Part shown: positions 19,058 through 26,952 of the stretch, piece after piece
Layout: every line of letters starts with the position of its first letter
Position numbering within the stretch: position 1 is the first letter of the stretch
Assembly (NCBI RefSeq): GCF_003633725.1
Contig: NZ_RBIJ01000003.1
Span: 62,001 to 126,000, forward strand
DNA from: Brockia lithotrophica
GTDB lineage: Bacteria > Bacillota > Bacilli > Thermicanales > DSM-22653
Reading direction: 5' to 3'
DNA: 64,000 nucleotides
Notes under the pieces: model-generated
The model's database searches: none
The model's input: only the letters and a program-made list of their open reading frames with translations
Told to the model about the DNA's origin: nothing
Translations under genes and position numbers: made by a program

Positions 19058-19064
19058 TCATGAG
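19040..19064. terminator. Hairpin at the end of the CRISPR effector operon
   Basis: Inverted repeat CTCATG / CATGAG with an inner CTTG / CAAG pairing, spanning the stop codon of the last gene. A run of six T follows on the plus strand (19067-19072) and a run of five T lies about a dozen bases beyond it on the minus strand. Possible weak bidirectional terminator. Confidence 0.35.
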
Positions 19065-19963
19065 AGTTTTTTCCACAACCCATCTTTCTCAATAGACCAT
19101 TTCGGTTCGTCTTTACTTTCGTTTCTTTCTTTATAAAACCGAGAACCTGGTACCCATACGAGATCATTTTTTTTGAGCTCTCCGTTATCCCAGCCCACTA
19201 ACATCTCCCATGCTCCGTACATCTTCGAGGTTGCGGTTGCGATTGATGCGTGAGCCAAAACGCTGTCGCTTCGAACCTCTGGGTTGTTTTTTTGCAAATC
19301 TACTGGAATACCGAAAAAAATACCATCTTTAATTTCCTCAAAATACTCCCGTCGAACTCGTCCCAATCCATAGCGGGTGTCCCCACCGATAAACAGCTCT
19401 TTGGTTTTGGTTTCTAACTCTCTTTTAAGAGTGTCGTGGTCATCATCATTGAAAATGAAAATATAACCTGAAAATAATACCGGGAGAAAATCGCCATGTT
19501 TTTCCCCCCAGAACGACCATTGATTTACTACCTCGTTTTCGCGAAGAGTGCCCTCGCTTACAGTATCGGAATTGGGATCTATGGCCGTACCCATCCGTGT
19601 GGTAAGGAGCCAACGTCGAAATTCCCTATCTTTTACTTCCCGACTCCGATCTTCCCGTCGCCACAGCAATCCTTTCCCAAATTCATAGATTGGGATCCAA
19701 GCGATCCAGTCTTGATCCACAGGTTGGGCCGGAAATAGATAGCTTAAACGAGTTTTTTCGCGAAGCTTATCACCCTCACCTTTATAATTAGGCGACCCAC
19801 CTGAAGAACTTGCTTTCTTCCTGGCAAGTTCTGCGGTGAGGGCCCCCCAGAGCGTACGAGCCGGCACGTAGAGGCGCGTGCGATTGAGTTGTCCGGCCGG
19901 AGTCGTCCCGATGTATAGGGGCGCCTCCAATCGCCAGACCCAACGATACATCTTCCAACTCAT
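19058..19963 (-). CDS. Type III CRISPR RAMP protein, Cmr3-like
   Basis: A 301-residue RAMP (Repeat-Associated Mysterious Protein) of the effector complex. An N-terminal strand and turn PLYIGTTPAG is followed by PARTLWGALTAELA, the GA(L)R-type helix of group 5 RAMPs. The segment TRMGTAIDP...SEGTL at residues 122-140 matches the Cmr3/Csm4 pattern in which this loop caps the crRNA 5' handle. The glycine-rich loop LFIGGDTRYGLGRV is at 190-203. The ATG overlaps the Cmr5 stop (ATGA). Csx10 is the main alternative name. Last gene of the operon. Confidence 0.7.
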   Translation of the reverse strand: MSWKMYRWVWRLEAPLYIGTTPAGQLNRTRLYVPARTLWGALTAELARKKASSSGGSPNYKGEGDKLREKTRLSYLFPAQPVDQDWIAWIPIYEFGKGLLWRREDRSREVKDREFRRWLLTTRMGTAIDPNSDTVSEGTLRENEVVNQWSFWGEKHGDFLPVLFSGYIFIFNDDDHDTLKRELETKTKELFIGGDTRYGLGRVRREYFEEIKDGIFFGIPVDLQKNNPEVRSDSVLAHASIATATSKMYGAWEMLVGWDNGELKKNDLVWVPGSRFYKERNESKDEPKWSIEKDGLWKKLS

Positions 19964-20358
19964 GACCCGCGCCCCCCCTTGGCTTTGAGGAAATAACGGG
20001 CGTAAGAGAGTGCCGTACGCAGCAAGTCGCGGGCGAAGAGCAGGTCATCCAAATTTTGCGCTAACTTCTTCACAGCTTCCAGAATGTCTTCTTGAATGTC
20101 TTCTTGAATGTCTTCTTCTTTACCCAAACGGTCACCGAATATATTTTGGAAAAAAAACAGAGACTTATCAGAAATGGAATCTTTAGCTTCATTATACCGG
20201 GCTCTTACATATAGGAACATGGCATAGAGCCCTTGCTCCTCCAAGACGGCCAAAGCTTCGTTGAATAATTTTTCATTAACTTTTTCGATATCCGCCAATT
20301 CGCGTCCCAGCTTAGCGCATTGGATCTCCAGGTTGGTTATGCCTCGGTCCTCCCTCAT
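19960..20358 (-). CDS. cmr5: Type III CRISPR small subunit, Cmr5/Cas11-like
   Basis: A 132-residue, all-helical protein rich in Glu, Leu and Lys, with the helices LFNEALAVLEEQGLYAMFLYV and LLFARDLLRTALSYARYFLKA typical of the Cmr5 small subunit that lines the belly of the effector complex and binds target RNA. ATG 20358 has AAGGAGGAG upstream and overlaps the Cmr4 stop (ATGA); an earlier ATG is less likely. An acidic stretch near residues 85-97 is built of three in-frame copies of EDIQ (see the repeat at 20082-20117). Confidence 0.75.
   Translation of the reverse strand: MREDRGITNLEIQCAKLGRELADIEKVNEKLFNEALAVLEEQGLYAMFLYVRARYNEAKDSISDKSLFFFQNIFGDRLGKEEDIQEDIQEDILEAVKKLAQNLDDLLFARDLLRTALSYARYFLKAKGGRGS
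20082..20117. repeat. Tandem repeat in cmr5, 12 bases x 3
   Basis: Three exact copies of GAATGTCTTCTT (plus-strand reading), in frame, encoding EDIQ-EDIQ-EDIL. Copy number can change without breaking the frame. Confidence 0.85.
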
Positions 20359-21515
20359 GAACGATCTCCTCCTTGGCTTGGAGGTGACGTGCAATCGATA
20401 GAATCAATCGATTGGCCGCTATCAGGATCTCCTGAGTAAACCACCTTCACCCTTCCCATGCCCCTGGTGCCCATGCCACCGATGCCCAGGTACTCCATGT
20501 ATGGATGAGCTTTTGCGGCGACTTGGCAGACCTTTTTGGGAGTGTCCATTTCCCCGCCACCGTCCATGGTCACTTGGATGTCCTGGCCTCTCACCTTGAA
20601 GTATTTTGGGTTTTTGCAAATAATCTCCCACACCAGAACTGTCCACCGAGGCAGGGCTTCGTAAGAAAACAGGGCCCCTTCCTCCGCCGCACCTGTTTCC
20701 GGGTTGATGGAGACCGATGTGCGAACTTCCAAGTTGCTATTGACGATGTGGGAAAAAAGACGATCGGGCACCAGGGCCAAATTGTTGGGGATGCAGGAGA
20801 AGATGTCGGGAATACCGGAAGTGTCGGGAGTGCCAGATGTGTCGAGAGTACCGGAGGTGTCGGAAGTATAACCCAGGCCCCACAAGTTTCGAAACCTCTT
20901 TTTTTTGATCTTACTAATTTGATCGCATTCTCGTACTGGCAGCAGTAGCCAACCTAGGTTTAACTTATAATAGGAACTTTTTTCCATGTATACTGCATTA
21001 TCATCAACTCCTTGAACTTTCAGCCCGATCTGACGCAAAGCCATCGGGCTTGTCACCCACTTGGGACCCTCGCGGGTGGGAACGGGAAAGAGCAGGACAT
21101 GGGCGTCGGTAAAGGCAGCCAACCCGGCAAAACCACCCTCCTGCCCCGCACCCGCAGCAAAACCAAAGACGGTGCAGACCGGACAGTTCGGATAGCGGCA
21201 GTGACCGTTCTTTTGATCAAGCCCCAATCCTGCACAGTCCGGAAAATAGGGTTTTTTTCGAGTTTTGGACTGTTGTTCGGACTGTTGTTCGGACTGTTGT
21301 CCTTGTTGTAGCTTTAATTGTCGGTCTTCCTCGTAATGCATCGCCACATAGGTCCGATATACTCCGGCCAAACTGGAGCCCGGGATCTTGGGAATACGGG
21401 TTACCGGATCGCGAACGATGGTGAGGTCCACACGGCCGATGTGGGCGCCCCCAGCGCCCACGTGGATGGGATCGAGCGCGATGCCAACTTGAAGGAACTT
21501 TTGGTAACTAGTCAT
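20355..21515 (-). CDS. cmr4: Type III CRISPR backbone RAMP protein Cmr4
   Basis: A 386-residue backbone subunit expected in several copies along the crRNA. The N-terminus DPIHVGAG, then Asp30 in GRVDLTIVRD, is the loop whose aspartate cuts target RNA in Cmr4 and Csm3; it is kept here. IPGSSLAGVYR at 44-54 is the RAMP helix. CRYPNCPVCTVFG at 106-118 is a cysteine pair common in this family, and YLGIGGMGTRGMGRV near the end is the glycine-rich loop. ATG 21515 is preceded by AAAGGAGGAG and lies 14 bases after cas10. Two low-complexity inserts (EQQS at about 73-84, DTSG repeats near 225-245) come from tandem DNA repeats. Confidence 0.85.
   Translation of the reverse strand: MTSYQKFLQVGIALDPIHVGAGGAHIGRVDLTIVRDPVTRIPKIPGSSLAGVYRTYVAMHYEEDRQLKLQQGQQSEQQSEQQSKTRKKPYFPDCAGLGLDQKNGHCRYPNCPVCTVFGFAAGAGQEGGFAGLAAFTDAHVLLFPVPTREGPKWVTSPMALRQIGLKVQGVDDNAVYMEKSSYYKLNLGWLLLPVRECDQISKIKKKRFRNLWGLGYTSDTSGTLDTSGTPDTSGIPDIFSCIPNNLALVPDRLFSHIVNSNLEVRTSVSINPETGAAEEGALFSYEALPRWTVLVWEIICKNPKYFKVRGQDIQVTMDGGGEMDTPKKVCQVAAKAHPYMEYLGIGGMGTRGMGRVKVVYSGDPDSGQSIDSIDCTSPPSQGGDRS
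20812..20883. repeat. Tandem repeat in cmr4, 18 bases x 4 (degenerate)
   Basis: Four imperfect copies, about 18 bases each, with core GTGTCGGGAGTACCGGA, in frame and encoding a (P/L)DTSGT-type hexapeptide four times. Lies in a probable surface loop of Cmr4. Confidence 0.75.
21267..21302. repeat. Tandem repeat in cmr4, 12 bases x 3
   Basis: Three near-exact copies of GGACTGTTGTTC (plus-strand reading), in frame, encoding glutamine/serine-rich EQQS units in a loop of Cmr4. Confidence 0.85.
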
Positions 21516-21529
21516 GGCTGCTCCTCCTT

Positions 21530-24500
21530 TTATAGTCTTTCTTTCAATACAGCGATGTGCCAATCCAGCGTCCATCGTAGGATACCTTGCACAGCGGCTT
21601 CGGTGAGCGCCTCCAATTCTGTGCCATGCACCTCCAGATGGTGAGCCAGAAAGGCTTTTAAGGTTTCTCGCCAGAGATCGGGCGAGGCTGCCAGTTTCTT
21701 TTCTGGGGGCGCCTTCCACTCTTCTTCCAGACGTGCCAACTCACTACGCAGGCTCTGCAATGCCGTCTGGCTGGGCGCCACCCGCTGCAAGAGCGCCCAT
21801 ATTTGACGCATTTGCGTCCAATCCTCAAGGTATCGCGGGGGCGTTATGTTAAAGCGCGCGGCGGTGCTATCCATGAAGAGCGTATTCACCCGTGCCGGGA
21901 CTACCTGAATATCGTCTCCCGGCAGGAGATCGGCGACATGACGGTATACCTTACCGTACGGATGCTGGAAGTCGCGGGGAAAGCGCACCTGAGAATCCTT
22001 TACGGCTACGTACGGGTAGAACACGTCCTCCCGGCCGTCGGGCAGGACGACCGGCACGTCCCGAAGGACTTCGCGGTCGTCAACTCGGCGTCGGCGCATG
22101 CGCAAGGTCACTACACCTGCCATTTGTCTCGTTTCCACCACCATCCAGGTCTCTTCCCCGCTCGCCAGCCCGTCTTCCACATTGCGCACAGCCTCTACGA
22201 TCGCCTGATAGGGAACCATTCGCGGGAAGGCGACCACGCCCACTCGAAGGGGAAGGCGGTCCCATACCCGGGCGAAGCGCTTCTGCCACTGGGCCACGGC
22301 CAGGTCCACACATTCGGAAGCCACCTCTAACGGCACCAGCACGCGGAAGCGCAAGGGGGAGAGTTCCACGGGGATCACAGGATGATACACGCTCAGATGT
22401 GCGAAGGGTTGCCATGATCCCCGAACCTGTTTTACTGTCATCTCGCGGCGCCCTTCGGGCGCATCTTCGACTTCCAGGGATATCCTCACCCCCTGCAAGT
22501 CGGTCTGGGAGTCTTCCGGCCTAAGCCAGCGCGCCAGGTTGAAGGCCGTAACGAAACCACCGAGCTCCTTTACGTAGATCAGGCTGATCTGCCGCCCTTG
22601 CCAGCGGCCGTTGTAGAGGGTCAGATCACGCCACTCGTCATGGTTATCCGGGACCAGCAGCAGCCGCCGCACCCGCCAGGGGTTGTCGCTGCGAGCGGCC
22701 AGCTGACGAAATTCCCTCAGAAGGTCGTGAAAAAACTCTTCTGATTCTCGCCAGAAACGGTAAACCCGACCTGGGGATGGAAGTTTGCGGAAGAGCTGGT
22801 GGGCAAGCCAGGAGATGCGCTTGTCGTCGTTCAACTCATCCCAGCTAGGCGCATCTGCGCGATCTTCAACGATTTGCTCGTAAAAGGTGCGCCACAGATG
22901 TTTCTCGTAGCTGTTATTATCATCATTTTTTCTTTGAAGATTCGATTTTCTAAAGTGTTTAAAACCATCGTGGAGGTTATTCAAAAAAATATCGTCGTCA
23001 ACAAATTTCCAATTTCCGCTTTTATCTAGAATTTTTTCCTTAATTAAACCAACAATTTGGGAAAATAAAGTCTGCGGAGATATTGGATTACTAATTCGTT
23101 TGGATTCGCCTTCTTGAAATACAGGATTGAATCTCGCCCACTCCGGAATCGCCTGCGCTCGCAGGCTGTCTACGCGTTCGCCGTTCAGCCAATCTTCCAG
23201 ATCCAGCGAAAAGGTAAGTAAGGCAAGGCGATCGTTGCTGTCGGCCACTTCTTCAAACCAGATAGTGTCATTTCCCAACTGTCCAAAAATCCAGTCGTCG
23301 CGACGGTGGTGACGACGTTCACGGCATACCTCACAGGGTTTACCCTTGTTGGTGCGGTCTCCGTTGAGGCGCACCTGGCAAACGGGGCAAACGTGGCCTT
23401 GTGCTTCCGTAGGAACTCGGTGACAAATGTCCCACGGTTTGTGAATCGGAACGGCCACAGTTTTTCGAGCTTCCCTCCACTCACGCACCATCGGCACCAA
23501 GGAACGCGTAGGGCTGCTGAGGCGCACATAGGGCGGTGTTTCCAGGTTAAGATCATAGGCAAACTTATCCACTTGTTCCCGTAGCAAGGTGTTCAAACTC
23601 TTAAGCCAGGGAGCAAAAATCCGGTCGTCGTATTTGAAACTCGAGTCATTTAGACGTTGTCGCTCCAGTTCTTCTTCGTCAAACCGCTCTCCTGGTAAAG
23701 AAAACACAGCTACGGTGTTATCCCGATAGAGCAGAGAACCAACTGCCAGGTCCACTTCTACCAGCGCAGCCACTTGGCGAAAAAAATCTTCAATGTCACT
23801 CTTAGCGCCCGTCCAATCGCCAATCTTCACTGCCCGGGCCTCGTAGTGCTCCGTACCGAGGGCTACGGTGAGCAGGCGCCAGCGAGTGTTGTTTTTGATA
23901 AATGCGTTTATGTATGCTTTTTTGTCACTATCCTTATTCGGTAATTTTAATGATAATTTTTGAGCGATTTTCTTGATATTATTCTCATCCAAGAAATTAA
24001 GTTTTATATCCGGATAGATCTGATAAAGCGTTTTCAAAAGCTCTCCAGCCACCGCACTCTTGAACAGCGCGGCAGCCACGTAAGACTGATCCCAGAGGGT
24101 GACGTCGTTGTCGGGTAAGCGGGTTTCGGCTAGGGTGGAGAGGAAAGCACGGCGGATGAAAGAACCCTCACCAATAGCGCTATTTCGCCATTTCAGCCAG
24201 TCGTCGTCTGAGCCCTTGTCGGTGACCAGTTTTTGGAGTTCCTCCAACACCCGGCGGATTTCCCTCACCAGTTGTTCCCATCCCTGGGGGGAAAGGATTT
24301 CCGGCGGGTCGGCTAAGAGGTTGCGCTTGGGATGCCCCCAAGGAGAGGAAAGCCACATGTGGGGGATTGTCTGGCGGAGATAATTTGACGTCTGTGTAGG
24401 CAGGTTCTTTTCAACACCAGAGGTAATACCGTGTGCGGCTTGAAGAAGGCCCAGAAGCCCTGGGCTAGCCTTTGTATGTTTTTCGGTAAAATCGGCGAAG

Positions 24501-24757
24501 GATCGAGGCCAAGCGTCTTCGGGAATAATGTGACTACACCGCTGCCGTACCCATCCCAGGAGTTTATCCCAAGTAAAAGAGGTATTTTCCTGTTCATGCC
24601 ACTTTTTGTAATCATACTTGTTGTTTTCACCGCCGTGTTTACGCAGAAACTCCTCACGCGCCTTACCCGCCATATGGAACCAACCGATAGCTTCCATGGC
24701 CAGGAGCAGGGGACGGCAATTTCGCAGAATTTCCGCAGGAGAAAGGCTGTCCGTCAT
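21530..24757 (-). CDS. cas10: Type III CRISPR large subunit Cas10, divergent and probably catalytically dead (III-C-like)
   Basis: A 1075-residue large subunit. The N-terminal HD region reads WFHMAGKA (residues 27-34) where active enzymes have HD-x-GK, so the metal-binding Asp is missing. A treble-clef zinc site is at about 456-478 (CPVC...CEVC). The first palm motif reads LTFSLDLEDWLNG instead of the DGD(R/N)xG type, and where the second palm should have GGDD the sequence reads VELSPLRFRVLVPLE (about 797-811). Loss of GGDD and strong divergence are the published traits of subtype III-C. ATG 24757 overlaps the previous stop (ATGA) and follows AGGAGGTACG. Without the cyclase motif, cyclic oligoadenylate signalling is unlikely. 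AT-rich, Lys/Asn-rich stretches alternate with GC-rich ones. Confidence 0.82.
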   Translation of the reverse strand: MTDSLSPAEILRNCRPLLLAMEAIGWFHMAGKAREEFLRKHGGENNKYDYKKWHEQENTSFTWDKLLGWVRQRCSHIIPEDAWPRSFADFTEKHTKASPGLLGLLQAAHGITSGVEKNLPTQTSNYLRQTIPHMWLSSPWGHPKRNLLADPPEILSPQGWEQLVREIRRVLEELQKLVTDKGSDDDWLKWRNSAIGEGSFIRRAFLSTLAETRLPDNDVTLWDQSYVAAALFKSAVAGELLKTLYQIYPDIKLNFLDENNIKKIAQKLSLKLPNKDSDKKAYINAFIKNNTRWRLLTVALGTEHYEARAVKIGDWTGAKSDIEDFFRQVAALVEVDLAVGSLLYRDNTVAVFSLPGERFDEEELERQRLNDSSFKYDDRIFAPWLKSLNTLLREQVDKFAYDLNLETPPYVRLSSPTRSLVPMVREWREARKTVAVPIHKPWDICHRVPTEAQGHVCPVCQVRLNGDRTNKGKPCEVCRERRHHRRDDWIFGQLGNDTIWFEEVADSNDRLALLTFSLDLEDWLNGERVDSLRAQAIPEWARFNPVFQEGESKRISNPISPQTLFSQIVGLIKEKILDKSGNWKFVDDDIFLNNLHDGFKHFRKSNLQRKNDDNNSYEKHLWRTFYEQIVEDRADAPSWDELNDDKRISWLAHQLFRKLPSPGRVYRFWRESEEFFHDLLREFRQLAARSDNPWRVRRLLLVPDNHDEWRDLTLYNGRWQGRQISLIYVKELGGFVTAFNLARWLRPEDSQTDLQGVRISLEVEDAPEGRREMTVKQVRGSWQPFAHLSVYHPVIPVELSPLRFRVLVPLEVASECVDLAVAQWQKRFARVWDRLPLRVGVVAFPRMVPYQAIVEAVRNVEDGLASGEETWMVVETRQMAGVVTLRMRRRRVDDREVLRDVPVVLPDGREDVFYPYVAVKDSQVRFPRDFQHPYGKVYRHVADLLPGDDIQVVPARVNTLFMDSTAARFNITPPRYLEDWTQMRQIWALLQRVAPSQTALQSLRSELARLEEEWKAPPEKKLAASPDLWRETLKAFLAHHLEVHGTELEALTEAAVQGILRWTLDWHIAVLKERL

Positions 24758-25722
24758 GGCGTACCTCCTACCGAAAGCCAAGTTTGCACTTTTTTCCAGA
24801 GGGCTCCACGATCGCTTTCCTTCACTTCTCCCCCATCCTTATGGAAAGCCCGCCATTCCGTGATCTTCGCCGTCCCCCAGCCCACGGTGCGTTTGGCGGA
24901 GATACCGTAAACAGTAAGTAGGTATTCAATGGCTTCCAATAGCTTGGGAAGCACCTCTTTGGGGTCGGCGCTGAACTTCGTAGAGTCGGCACTGAACTTC
25001 ATCCCGGGCCAGGGGGCGTAAAGCAGGGAAAGGGTACCTTTTCCTCCTTCCTCATTAGGCCGTATTTCGGGCACCACCTCGTAGTAGATAGGTTGGGTAC
25101 CGGCGCGACGCTCCCGGCTGTGGGGGTTGATCACTTCGAAACCTATCTTGTTAAACCAAGTAGGATAAAACACTAGAGCTCCCTGACGAAAATTTTCTTT
25201 TTCTTCTTTTTCGTTGCCAAAGAGGTGCAAAATCCAGTCGGGGTCACGCCAGTTATCAAGTCGGTTGTTGTGCCGTTCCAGGTGCTCTCGCAATCCGTTC
25301 CGCATTCGACAAGCCCAACGCAACATGCCCTTCCAGGAGGAGGCCGCCATGAAGGGCACACCGAAGACCCGGTCTTTGCGCACCGGGTTGTCCAGCACGT
25401 GGAAGACCCGGTCATCTTTGGAATACCAAGGGGTAAGGAGTTCGAAGTCTACCTGGAGGCCGATCCAATTTAGGGAGGGTAGGTGTGAGAAATCGGGAAC
25501 TACTCCCGAAAGGAAATCACATTTTTGGTTCTTCGTGTCTGATTTCCGCGCTTTATCTATATAATTTTTACGAGCCCTCTCCTTATCTCCACCTAGAAAG
25601 AATCTCAGCGAAACCTCATCTACAAATCCGCTTGCAAGACACTCGAAGGAAACCGATATTTCTTGAGTGTTGTTTATATTTTCAATTGTATCGGCAATAA
25701 ACACAAAGTAGTCCCAAGTCAT
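24754..25722 (-). CDS. Type III CRISPR RAMP protein, Cmr6-like
   Basis: A 322-residue RAMP. After a leader of about 90 residues comes the group 7 pattern: FELLTPWYSKDDRVF, then VFGVPFMAASSWKGMLRWA at 119-137 (the GxPxxxxSSxKGxxR helix of Cmr6/Cmr4/Csm3), and near the C-terminus YGISAKRTVGWGTAKI, the glycine-rich loop. It precedes cas10 with an ATGA overlap. Cmr6 caps the 3' end of the crRNA in type III-B, and a similar role is likely. AAGGAGGAAG precedes the ATG. The assignment to Cmr6 rather than another RAMP group is moderate. Confidence 0.7.
   Translation of the reverse strand: MTWDYFVFIADTIENINNTQEISVSFECLASGFVDEVSLRFFLGGDKERARKNYIDKARKSDTKNQKCDFLSGVVPDFSHLPSLNWIGLQVDFELLTPWYSKDDRVFHVLDNPVRKDRVFGVPFMAASSWKGMLRWACRMRNGLREHLERHNNRLDNWRDPDWILHLFGNEKEEKENFRQGALVFYPTWFNKIGFEVINPHSRERRAGTQPIYYEVVPEIRPNEEGGKGTLSLLYAPWPGMKFSADSTKFSADPKEVLPKLLEAIEYLLTVYGISAKRTVGWGTAKITEWRAFHKDGGEVKESDRGALWKKVQTWLSVGGTP
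24964..25005. repeat. Tandem repeat in the cmr6-like gene, 21 bases x 2
   Basis: Two copies, with four differences, of a 21-base unit starting GTCGGCGCTGAACTTC, in frame, giving KFSADST and KFSADPK in a loop before the C-terminal RAMP strand. Confidence 0.7.
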
Positions 25723-25737
25723 GTGTCTTCCTCCTTG

Positions 25738-26952
25738 TTAAGAGTGGTTGAATAGCTCACCCAAAATCTGATCGACTGTTAGAAAATCTATATCTGGGTT
25801 AAACTCGTCGCCCCAGGCATCTTTTAGCCGACTCTTCATATTTTCAGGATCAATTTTCTCTTTTGGATTCACAAAGCCGAAAGTTAGTGCCTTTCCGTTT
25901 GTGTTCTTAAAGCTAAACACTTTTTTGCTTTCAGGAAGCTGACCTCCTGTTGCTTTATATCCGGCGATCCATTTATCTGAATTTTCATCAGATGATTTTT
26001 CCTTTTCACTTGGACGCCCAATCACCATATTGAAAGTGCTTTCGTTGTTATTCAACCTCGCCAGATATTTCCCCTTTACGCACCAAAAGTACTTTAGGGA
26101 GGCCCAGGCAAAGGGTTTGTAGTCAAAGCCCTTTCGCCATTGTGAATCAATCACATATTTTTCTGCTTCTCCTCGACTGCAATTAATATCTTCAGGAGAA
26201 TGTTCAAGTTTCACTAGTCCAAAATCTATATGGTGTCTTTTACCGGCCCACGATTTTATTTTTTCTGTCTCTCCGTTACTTTTCTTGACCTCAATTTCTA
26301 TAGGATCGCCGTGTCGCTTTTCCTTAAGGATTCGCTCAATATCGTCGATACTACTAACCTGTTCTCCGTCAATCTTCAAGATGATATCATTTTTACGTAA
26401 TTTGAGGCCTTTCCGGCTGTTTTTCACTATTACTTGGTTGTTATGTACACCTAAATCGTCTTTACCAAGGTCTTCAATCCCCCATTCCTTCGACGGCTTC
26501 AACACCGTCCTGCCCCCTACCGCACCACATTTCGAGATTAAATTTAGAGTGGCATTCAGCAGACACCACTCCTCTTCCCGAATGAAGCGCAAGGGGATGA
26601 AGCGGAGGATGAAGGTTTGCTTGGCTTTAATTTGATTCTGAATGACTCGGCCATTTTCATCCAGAACCATCAGTCGGAACTTGCGCGCCCATCCGGTGCA
26701 ACCGAAAAGTTCACAAACGACACAGTGATGGTCGGCTTCATTAGGACGCTTTCCATGGTTTGGACAGCGAACCCTTCCGTCGGTAGGATCACATGCCTTC
26801 CCACCCAAACCTCGTACCAAAACTTCGAACCACCACCGGATGGACCCCATAAGTCCGGTGGGAATGAAGCGATTTCCCTTACCGTTCGCATCCCCGGTCC
26901 AAATGTCCGTCAAAGCCTTGAACTCCCATTCCTTCCATTCGCCAGCACCCAT
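25738..26952 (-). CDS. cmr1: Type III CRISPR RAMP protein Cmr1 with an internal PDZ-like domain
   Basis: A 404-residue protein and first gene of the operon. Residues 10-45 (ALTDIWTGDANGKGNRFIP, then GLMGSIRWWFEVL) are the Cmr1 signature; RCPN and HHCVVCELFGCTGW at 62-88 add cysteines that may bind zinc. LISKCGAVGGRTVLKPS (138-154) is the Cmr1 glycine-rich loop. Directly after it, residues 164-235 form a PDZ-like module: carboxylate-loop-like DLGV, then GLKLRKNDIILKIDGEQV, SSIDDIERIL, GDPIEIEVKKSNGETEKI. The RAMP sequence resumes with HHIDFGLVKLEHSPED at 240. The insert is AT-rich. The ribosome site (AAGGGGG) is weaker than for the other genes. Cmr1 binds near the crRNA 3' end in III-B complexes; what the PDZ part binds is unknown. 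Confidence 0.82.
   Translation of the reverse strand: MGAGEWKEWEFKALTDIWTGDANGKGNRFIPTGLMGSIRWWFEVLVRGLGGKACDPTDGRVRCPNHGKRPNEADHHCVVCELFGCTGWARKFRLMVLDENGRVIQNQIKAKQTFILRFIPLRFIREEEWCLLNATLNLISKCGAVGGRTVLKPSKEWGIEDLGKDDLGVHNNQVIVKNSRKGLKLRKNDIILKIDGEQVSSIDDIERILKEKRHGDPIEIEVKKSNGETEKIKSWAGKRHHIDFGLVKLEHSPEDINCSRGEAEKYVIDSQWRKGFDYKPFAWASLKYFWCVKGKYLARLNNNESTFNMVIGRPSEKEKSSDENSDKWIAGYKATGGQLPESKKVFSFKNTNGKALTFGFVNPKEKIDPENMKSRLKDAWGDEFNPDIDFLTVDQILGELFNHS

What the first reader, a model, noticed from the sequence alone, without database searches (positions are those of the whole stretch)
26248..26463. PDZ-like domain inserted inside a Cmr1 RAMP protein
Seen: the Cmr1 sequence is interrupted right after its glycine-rich loop (GAVGGRTVLKPS) by about 72 residues with the PDZ pattern GLKLRKNDIILKIDGEQV, SSIDDIERIL and a final EIEVKKSNGETEKI, then resumes with HHIDFGLVKLEHS. 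Known: PDZ domains bind C-terminal tails or internal strands of partner proteins, and in bacteria occur mostly in HtrA-type and membrane proteases. I know of no described Cmr1 with one. Inferred: the insert could dock a protease, a membrane partner or another effector onto the crRNA complex, replacing the cyclic-oligoadenylate output that this Cas10 seems to have lost.
Basis: partly seen in the sequence, partly recalled or inferred. Interest (0 to 1): 0.85.

Follow-up and report, generated by a model that had tools for sequence, protein, structure and literature searches.

The report
PDZ domain inserted in CRISPR Cmr1
One building block of an RNA-guided bacterial defence complex carries a protein-docking module (a PDZ domain) spliced into it at the end that holds the guide RNA; the same insertion occurs in three other distantly related bacteria, so it is a real and possibly useful add-on whose partner is unknown.

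Summary
Cmr1 of a type III-C CRISPR operon (window 25738-26952, minus strand) carries an 82-residue PDZ domain, residues 157-238 (26239-26484), between the crRNA-groove Gly loop and the conserved HHxDFGL motif. The domain passes Pfam's PDZ_2 cut-off and folds as an HtrA-type PDZ (AlphaFold2; Z about 10-11 to DegS and Rv0983). The rest of the model matches Cmr1 (Z 12.6 to 4l6u). Closest relatives have about 10 residues at that site. Three other genomes (Thermanaeromonas, a WOR-3 bacterium, a Geobacteraceae bacterium) carry the same insert at the same site, 47-53% identical to the window's, so it is conserved and not an assembly artefact. On the Cmr1 tree the four sit in one clade together with PDZ-free members: gained and lost, or swapped between relatives. 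No paper found in the library searched describes it. The best reading is an optional docking surface on the head of a complex that still looks competent to cut target RNA (Cmr4 Asp kept). The partner is unknown; a Cas10 C-terminal-tail ligand was tested and a counterexample was found.

The parts
25738..26952 (-). cmr1 (III-C Cmr1, RAMP/Cas7-like) with PDZ insert, 404 aa
   Evidence: Pfam RAMPs E 1.4e-19; TIGR01894 Cmr1 57 bits; model matches Cmr1 4l6u Z 12.6
26239..26484 (-). PDZ domain inserted in Cmr1, residues 157-238
   Evidence: PDZ_2 above the Pfam cut-off; AF2 model of residues 155-242 pLDDT 83, Z 11.0 to Rv0983, 10.6 to DegS; absent from the closest PDZ-free relatives
26476..26487 (-). 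EWGI (156-159): candidate carboxylate-binding X-phi-G-phi loop of the PDZ
   Evidence: Aligns with RPWLGV/RPTIGI of HtrA PDZs; E-W-[GS]-I in all four inserts
26491..26526 (-). Gly-rich loop GAVGGRTVLKPS just before the insert
   Evidence: Conserved GA[IVL]GG[KR] in nearly all relatives
26197..26235 (-). HHIDFGLVKLEHS, where Cmr1 resumes
   Evidence: HHxD[YF]GL conserved in most insert-free relatives
26827..26844 (-). SIRWWF, expected crRNA 3' groove tryptophans (W40, W41)
   Evidence: Conserved in all relatives; by analogy with P. furiosus Cmr1 W38/W39/R154 (PMC5965380)
24754..25722 (-). cmr6
   Evidence: PADLOC Cmr6 E 3e-69
21530..24781 (-). cas10 of type III-C (Csx11); palm and HD motifs degenerate; C-terminus ...VLKERL. 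Listed from a TTG start; an ATG lies a few codons in
   Evidence: PADLOC Cas10c E 1.6e-110; TIGR02682 Csx11 246.7 bits, just below the cut-off of 248.95; motifs
20355..21719 (-). cmr4 (likely starts at an internal ATG, about residue 69); catalytic Asp equivalent to P. furiosus D26 kept (GRVD, 21420-21437)
   Evidence: TIGR02580 122.9 bits; alignment to 4w8w
19960..20394 (-). cmr5
   Evidence: PADLOC Cmr5 E 3.1e-27
19058..19963 (-). cmr3
   Evidence: PADLOC Cmr3 E 1.9e-72

Best explanation
A type III-C Cmr complex whose head subunit Cmr1 acquired an HtrA-type PDZ domain in the loop between the crRNA-groove Gly loop and the HHxDFGL motif. The complex would still bind crRNA and cut target RNA with Cmr4. 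The PDZ, exposed at the head near the crRNA 3' end, would be an optional docking surface that recruits a partner protein by its C-terminus or a beta strand. Shown: the domain, its site, its presence in four phylogenetically scattered loci, its absence from close relatives, loss of both Cas10 motifs, retention of the Cmr4 Asp. Inferred: position in the complex (from P. furiosus Cmr), exposure, and peptide binding. Unknown: the partner.
For: PDZ_2 over the cut-off in all four. AF2 model of the full protein: Cmr1 Z 12.6 and PDZ 158-240 Z about 10; PDZ alone pLDDT 83, Z 11. Same site and length (81-82 aa) in four loci, about 10 aa linker in most other relatives. Inserts 42-59% identical to each other with invariant W, I, D, L, SRxGL, HGxP and WAGKRHH, i.e. 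kept in frame through long divergence. X-phi-[GS]-phi loop kept. Cmr1 caps the crRNA 3' end in III-B (PMC5965380, PMC7192623). Cmr4 Asp aligned.
Against: The segment after EWGI, where a PDZ usually has its peptide-binding strand, is a short helical turn in the model, and the SPAxxAGL segment is shortened, so canonical peptide binding is uncertain. No partner gene found. Patchy presence within the clade shows that related complexes do without the PDZ. No experiment.
Confidence: 0.45

Rival explanations
1. The PDZ is a structural spacer: it packs on the Cmr1/Cmr6 head or covers the crRNA 3' end or target RNA, tuning stability or crRNA length (for example at high temperature), and binds no peptide.
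For: Inserted 8 residues after the Gly loop next to the expected crRNA 3' groove; the groove strand is helical in the model; conserved WAGKRHH joins the insert to Cmr1; at least one source is thermophilic by name (Thermanaeromonas; inference).
Against: The carboxylate-loop motif E-W-[GS]-I is kept in all four; sister complexes do without the insert.
Confidence: 0.3
2. The PDZ binds the C-terminal tail of Cas10 (LKE-x-[LV]-COOH), closing the complex or linking complexes head to tail.
For: Cas10 ends in LKERL, LKENV, LKESL in 3 of 3 PDZ loci with a complete cas10; of 44 PDZ-free Cas10s in the first set none ends at that position with such a residue and 4 end in V/I/L/M/F at all (Fisher p 0.002, not corrected for relatedness).
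Against: A further PDZ-free member of the same clade (G742) ends in LKESV, so the tail can be a clade trait. In Cmr complexes Cas10 lies at the tail and Cmr1 at the head (PMC5965380), which disfavours contact within one complex. The hypothesis was formed after seeing the data.
Confidence: 0.1
3. The PDZ replaces the lost cyclic-oligoadenylate output by docking a protease, membrane or other effector.
For: Cas10 here lacks GGDD and HD; PDZs occur in proteases (general knowledge).
Against: Most PDZ-free close relatives in the set have the same motif losses, and III-C as a whole lacks the cyclase site (PMC11229360). No protease or membrane gene was found to be shared by the PDZ loci.
Confidence: 0.1
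4. A non-functional passenger: a PDZ fragment captured by recombination and tolerated in a loop, spreading by allele exchange.
For: Patchy presence (at least three changes on the tree); insert 42-59% identical, no more conserved than the C-terminal part of Cmr1.
Against: Open frame, same boundaries and fold-specific invariants kept in four lineages.
Confidence: 0.05

Closest known systems
Cmr1 of type III-B (4l6u A. fulgidus, 4w8x P. furiosus) and insert-free III-C Cmr1
   Same: RAMP folds, RWW motif and Gly loop, operon place; Z 12.6 and 10.9
   Different: 82 extra residues with a PDZ fold after the Gly loop; insert-free III-C relatives have about 10 there
PDZ domains of HtrA/DegS/Rv0983 proteases (Pfam PF13180)
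   Same: Fold and GLxxxDII...G..V...DL...L order; Z about 10-11; nearest free-standing sequences found are HtrA PDZs
   Different: No protease domain, SPAxxA segment shortened, N-terminal groove strand not extended in the model, part of an RNP subunit
Type III-C CRISPR-Cas (Csx11/Cas10c)
   Same: Cas10c, cmr1-cmr6-cas10-cmr4-cmr5-cmr3 order, cyclase motif lost
   Different: PDZ in Cmr1; HD also lost (also in PDZ-free members of the subclade)
Type III-E Cas7-11 with Csx29 protease (Craspase)
   Same: A RAMP effector associated with a protein effector, as an analogy only (PMC10028731)
   Different: No single-chain effector and no Csx29 here; PDZ occurs in that paper only in a reference title

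Membership tests
PDZ domain (PF13180) | Profile score above the curated cut-off | tested here: met
   28.4 bits against 27; 34.2, 32.6, 30.0 in the three homologues
PDZ domain (PF13180) | PDZ fold | tested here: met
   AF2 model, Z 11.0, rmsd 2.0, 78 residues to 2z9i; Z 10.6 to DegS; prediction, not experiment
PDZ domain (PF13180) | X-phi-G-phi carboxylate-binding loop | tested here: met
   EWGI, EWSI, EWGI, EWGI aligned to HtrA WLGV/TIGI; position 3 is Ser in one
PDZ domain (PF13180) | Open peptide groove between strand 2 and helix 2 | tested here: inconclusive
   Strand 2 region is a short helical turn in the models; coordinates could not be inspected
PDZ domain (PF13180) | Binds C-terminal or internal peptides | not testable with these tools
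   Needs binding assays
Cmr1 | RAMP domains with Cmr1 profile match and Cmr1 fold | tested here: met
   TIGR01894 57.1 bits against 28.65; 4l6u Z 12.6 over 209 residues
Type III-C CRISPR-Cas | Cas10 of the Csx11/Cas10c family | tested here: met
   PADLOC Cas10c E 1.6e-110; Csx11 model 246.7 bits, 2 bits under NCBI's cut-off
Type III-C CRISPR-Cas | Inactivated cyclase motif | tested here: met
   No GGDD at the aligned palm position; YRDNT there
Type III-C CRISPR-Cas | CRISPR array in cis (not a defining requirement: most III-C loci lack arrays, PMC12669027) | tested here: inconclusive
   No array in the window; the rest of the genome was not searched for arrays
HtrA-type protease | Trypsin-like protease domain | tested here: not met
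   No such match in Cmr1

The most novel reading that the evidence does not exclude
A sub-lineage of type III-C complexes that lost both Cas10 catalytic sites uses a PDZ domain on Cmr1 as an adaptor to recruit a protein effector or a cellular compartment, making an RNA-guided protein-docking complex.
Probability: 0.15. Interest if true: 0.85.

Novelty: new variant of a known kind. Interest (0 to 1): 0.55.

Why it matters
Type III-C is barely studied and has no known output besides possible target-RNA cutting (and, in about half of the systems, an HD nuclease). A conserved protein-interaction domain on the head of such a complex gives a concrete handle to find its partner. It would be the first PDZ domain reported in a crRNA-guided complex, as far as the papers held here show.

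Tried and rejected
Ordinary Cmr1 sequence at 164-235: rejected, insert-free homologues skip it. Assembly artefact or one-off: rejected by three homologous loci. Recent copy of a host PDZ: rejected, own-genome PDZs are at most about 31% identical. Cas10 C-terminal tail as ligand: suggestive at first, then a PDZ-free member with the same tail was found. PDZ as replacement for cOA: not specific to PDZ loci. Cmr6 C-terminal GGTP as ligand: also in PDZ-free L050 and G742. PDZ proteins as a single clade of their own: AU p 0.044, marginally rejected. Searches that found nothing: viral contigs, plasmids beyond three partial or PDZ-free hits, first genome-contig scan with the single protein, further PDZ loci in 277 and 147 genomes of the other two groups, Rfam. 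A profile search of insert-free Cmr1 against PDB sequences matched only type VII Cas7 and a large RAMP protein, so the site was placed by fold match and motif, not by residue alignment. Literature: no paper held joins PDZ and Cmr1 in one protein; subscription papers are not held.

Full report
What is there. The ORF at 25738-26952 (minus strand, 404 aa) is the first gene of a six-gene type III-C operon: cmr1, cmr6, cas10 (Csx11/Cas10c), cmr4, cmr5, cmr3. Pfam finds a RAMP domain at 10-149 and, above its curated cut-off, a PDZ_2 domain at 181-230. Compared with homologues, the added segment is residues 157-238, window 26239-26484, 82 residues, somewhat longer than reported.

It is an insertion. 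The nearest genome of the same family (G002) has a Cmr1 that is 65% identical up to residue 158 and resumes at 237 with no PDZ. In an alignment of Cmr1 homologues from many phyla, four carry 85-86 residues between KPS and HH, while most others carry 10 and none of the rest more than 21. The insert begins right after KPS[DEK]E and ends at WAGK-RHHxDFGL.

It is not alone. Contiguous homologues with the insert are in a Thermanaeromonas genome (G167; L018 and L049), a WOR-3 bacterium (L047) and a Geobacteraceae bacterium (L048). All three also pass Pfam's PDZ_2 cut-off. The inserts are 42-59% identical to each other, the N-terminal part of Cmr1 67-70%, the C-terminal part 48-67%. Invariant positions include E-W-x-I, SRxGL, HGxP and WAGKRHH.

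Fold. AlphaFold2 with five homologues gives a modest whole model (mean pLDDT 69) but 72-95 per ten-residue block across most of the insert. VIA-align matches the whole to Cmr1 (4l6u, Z 12.6) and residues 158-240 to the PDZ of DegS, DegQ, Deg8 and Rv0983 (Z about 10). The module alone (155-242) has pLDDT 83 and Z 11.0 to Rv0983, 10.6 to DegS. EWGI aligns with the X-phi-G-phi carboxylate loop of HtrA PDZs. Two features are not canonical: the stretch after EWGI is a short helix rather than a strand, and the SPAxxA segment is shortened. Peptide binding is therefore plausible, not shown.

Evolution. On the Cmr1 tree, built without the insert, the four fall in a supported clade with PDZ-free members: 99/88 with seven rows, 96/90 with nine rows after G742 and the Thermus plasmid copy were added. 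At least three changes are needed. G167 (PDZ) and L055 (no PDZ) are sisters with strong support. One clade of only PDZ proteins is marginally rejected (AU p 0.044). One gain with losses, or exchange between related alleles, both fit. The nearest free-standing PDZs found are those of HtrA proteases; the host's own PDZs are at most about 31% identical, so the insert is not a recent copy of one.

Place in the complex (inference). In P. furiosus Cmr, Cmr1 with Cmr6 forms the head and holds the crRNA 3' region in a groove with W38, W39 and R154, while Cas10 and Cmr3 form the tail (PMC5965380, PMC7192623). The window protein keeps the double tryptophan (RWWFE) and the Gly loop; the insert starts 8 residues after GGRT. 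It should thus stand at the head near the crRNA 3' end.

Catalysis. In this Cas10 the palm position reads YRDNT in place of GGDD, and the HD position reads HM. Both losses are shared by PDZ-free members of the subclade; some more distant relatives in the set keep HD. Absence of the cyclase site is already known for III-C, where about half keep HD (PMC11229360, PMC12669027). Cmr4 keeps the Asp aligned with P. furiosus D26, so target-RNA cutting is likely retained. Hence the PDZ is not tied to loss of cOA.

Partner search. Of the PDZ loci, only the window's and the WOR-3 locus extend well beyond the operon; no non-cas gene was found to be shared. The WOR-3 locus has cas6 upstream and, downstream, Csx15 plus a protein with a weak Csm6-CARF match and hydrophobic N-terminal stretches. 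The Cas10 C-terminus ends in LKE-x-[LV] in all three PDZ loci with a complete gene, against none at that position among 44 PDZ-free ones in the first set. Fetching two more loci broke the pattern: PDZ-free G742 ends in LKESV. I therefore leave this as a weak rival.

Verdict. A real, conserved but rare PDZ insertion in III-C Cmr1: a new variant of a known kind of complex. The most likely role is an optional docking surface on the head of an RNA-cutting complex (0.45), with a purely structural role next (0.3).

Noticed in passing
window 21530-24781 (-), and III-C homologues: In the subclade around this Csx11, the Cas10 HD motif is HM as well as the cyclase motif being lost, so both classical Cas10 activities look dead; more distant relatives in the set keep HD.
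   Followed up: partly
window 19058-26952: The cas operon is 47-58% G+C between flanks of about 60-70% G+C, which suggests horizontal acquisition. No CRISPR array in the window; Cas1 genes lie on other contigs.
   Followed up: no
window 20805-20861, 21264-21308, 20080-20121, 24958-24999: Short in-frame tandem repeats in several cas genes: DTSGxxDTSG and QQSEQQSEQQS in cmr4, EDIQEDIQEDI in cmr5, KFSAD repeated in cmr6.
   Followed up: no
L116 6539-9800: On Thermus thermophilus plasmid pHB5018b the III-C cmr1 region is interrupted by an IS3 element and followed by an IS701-like element.
   Followed up: no
L047 16842-18253: Downstream of a III-C operon with a cyclase-dead Cas10 lie Csx15 and a protein with hydrophobic N-terminal stretches and a weak Csm6-CARF match, odd for a system thought not to make cOA.
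   Followed up: partly
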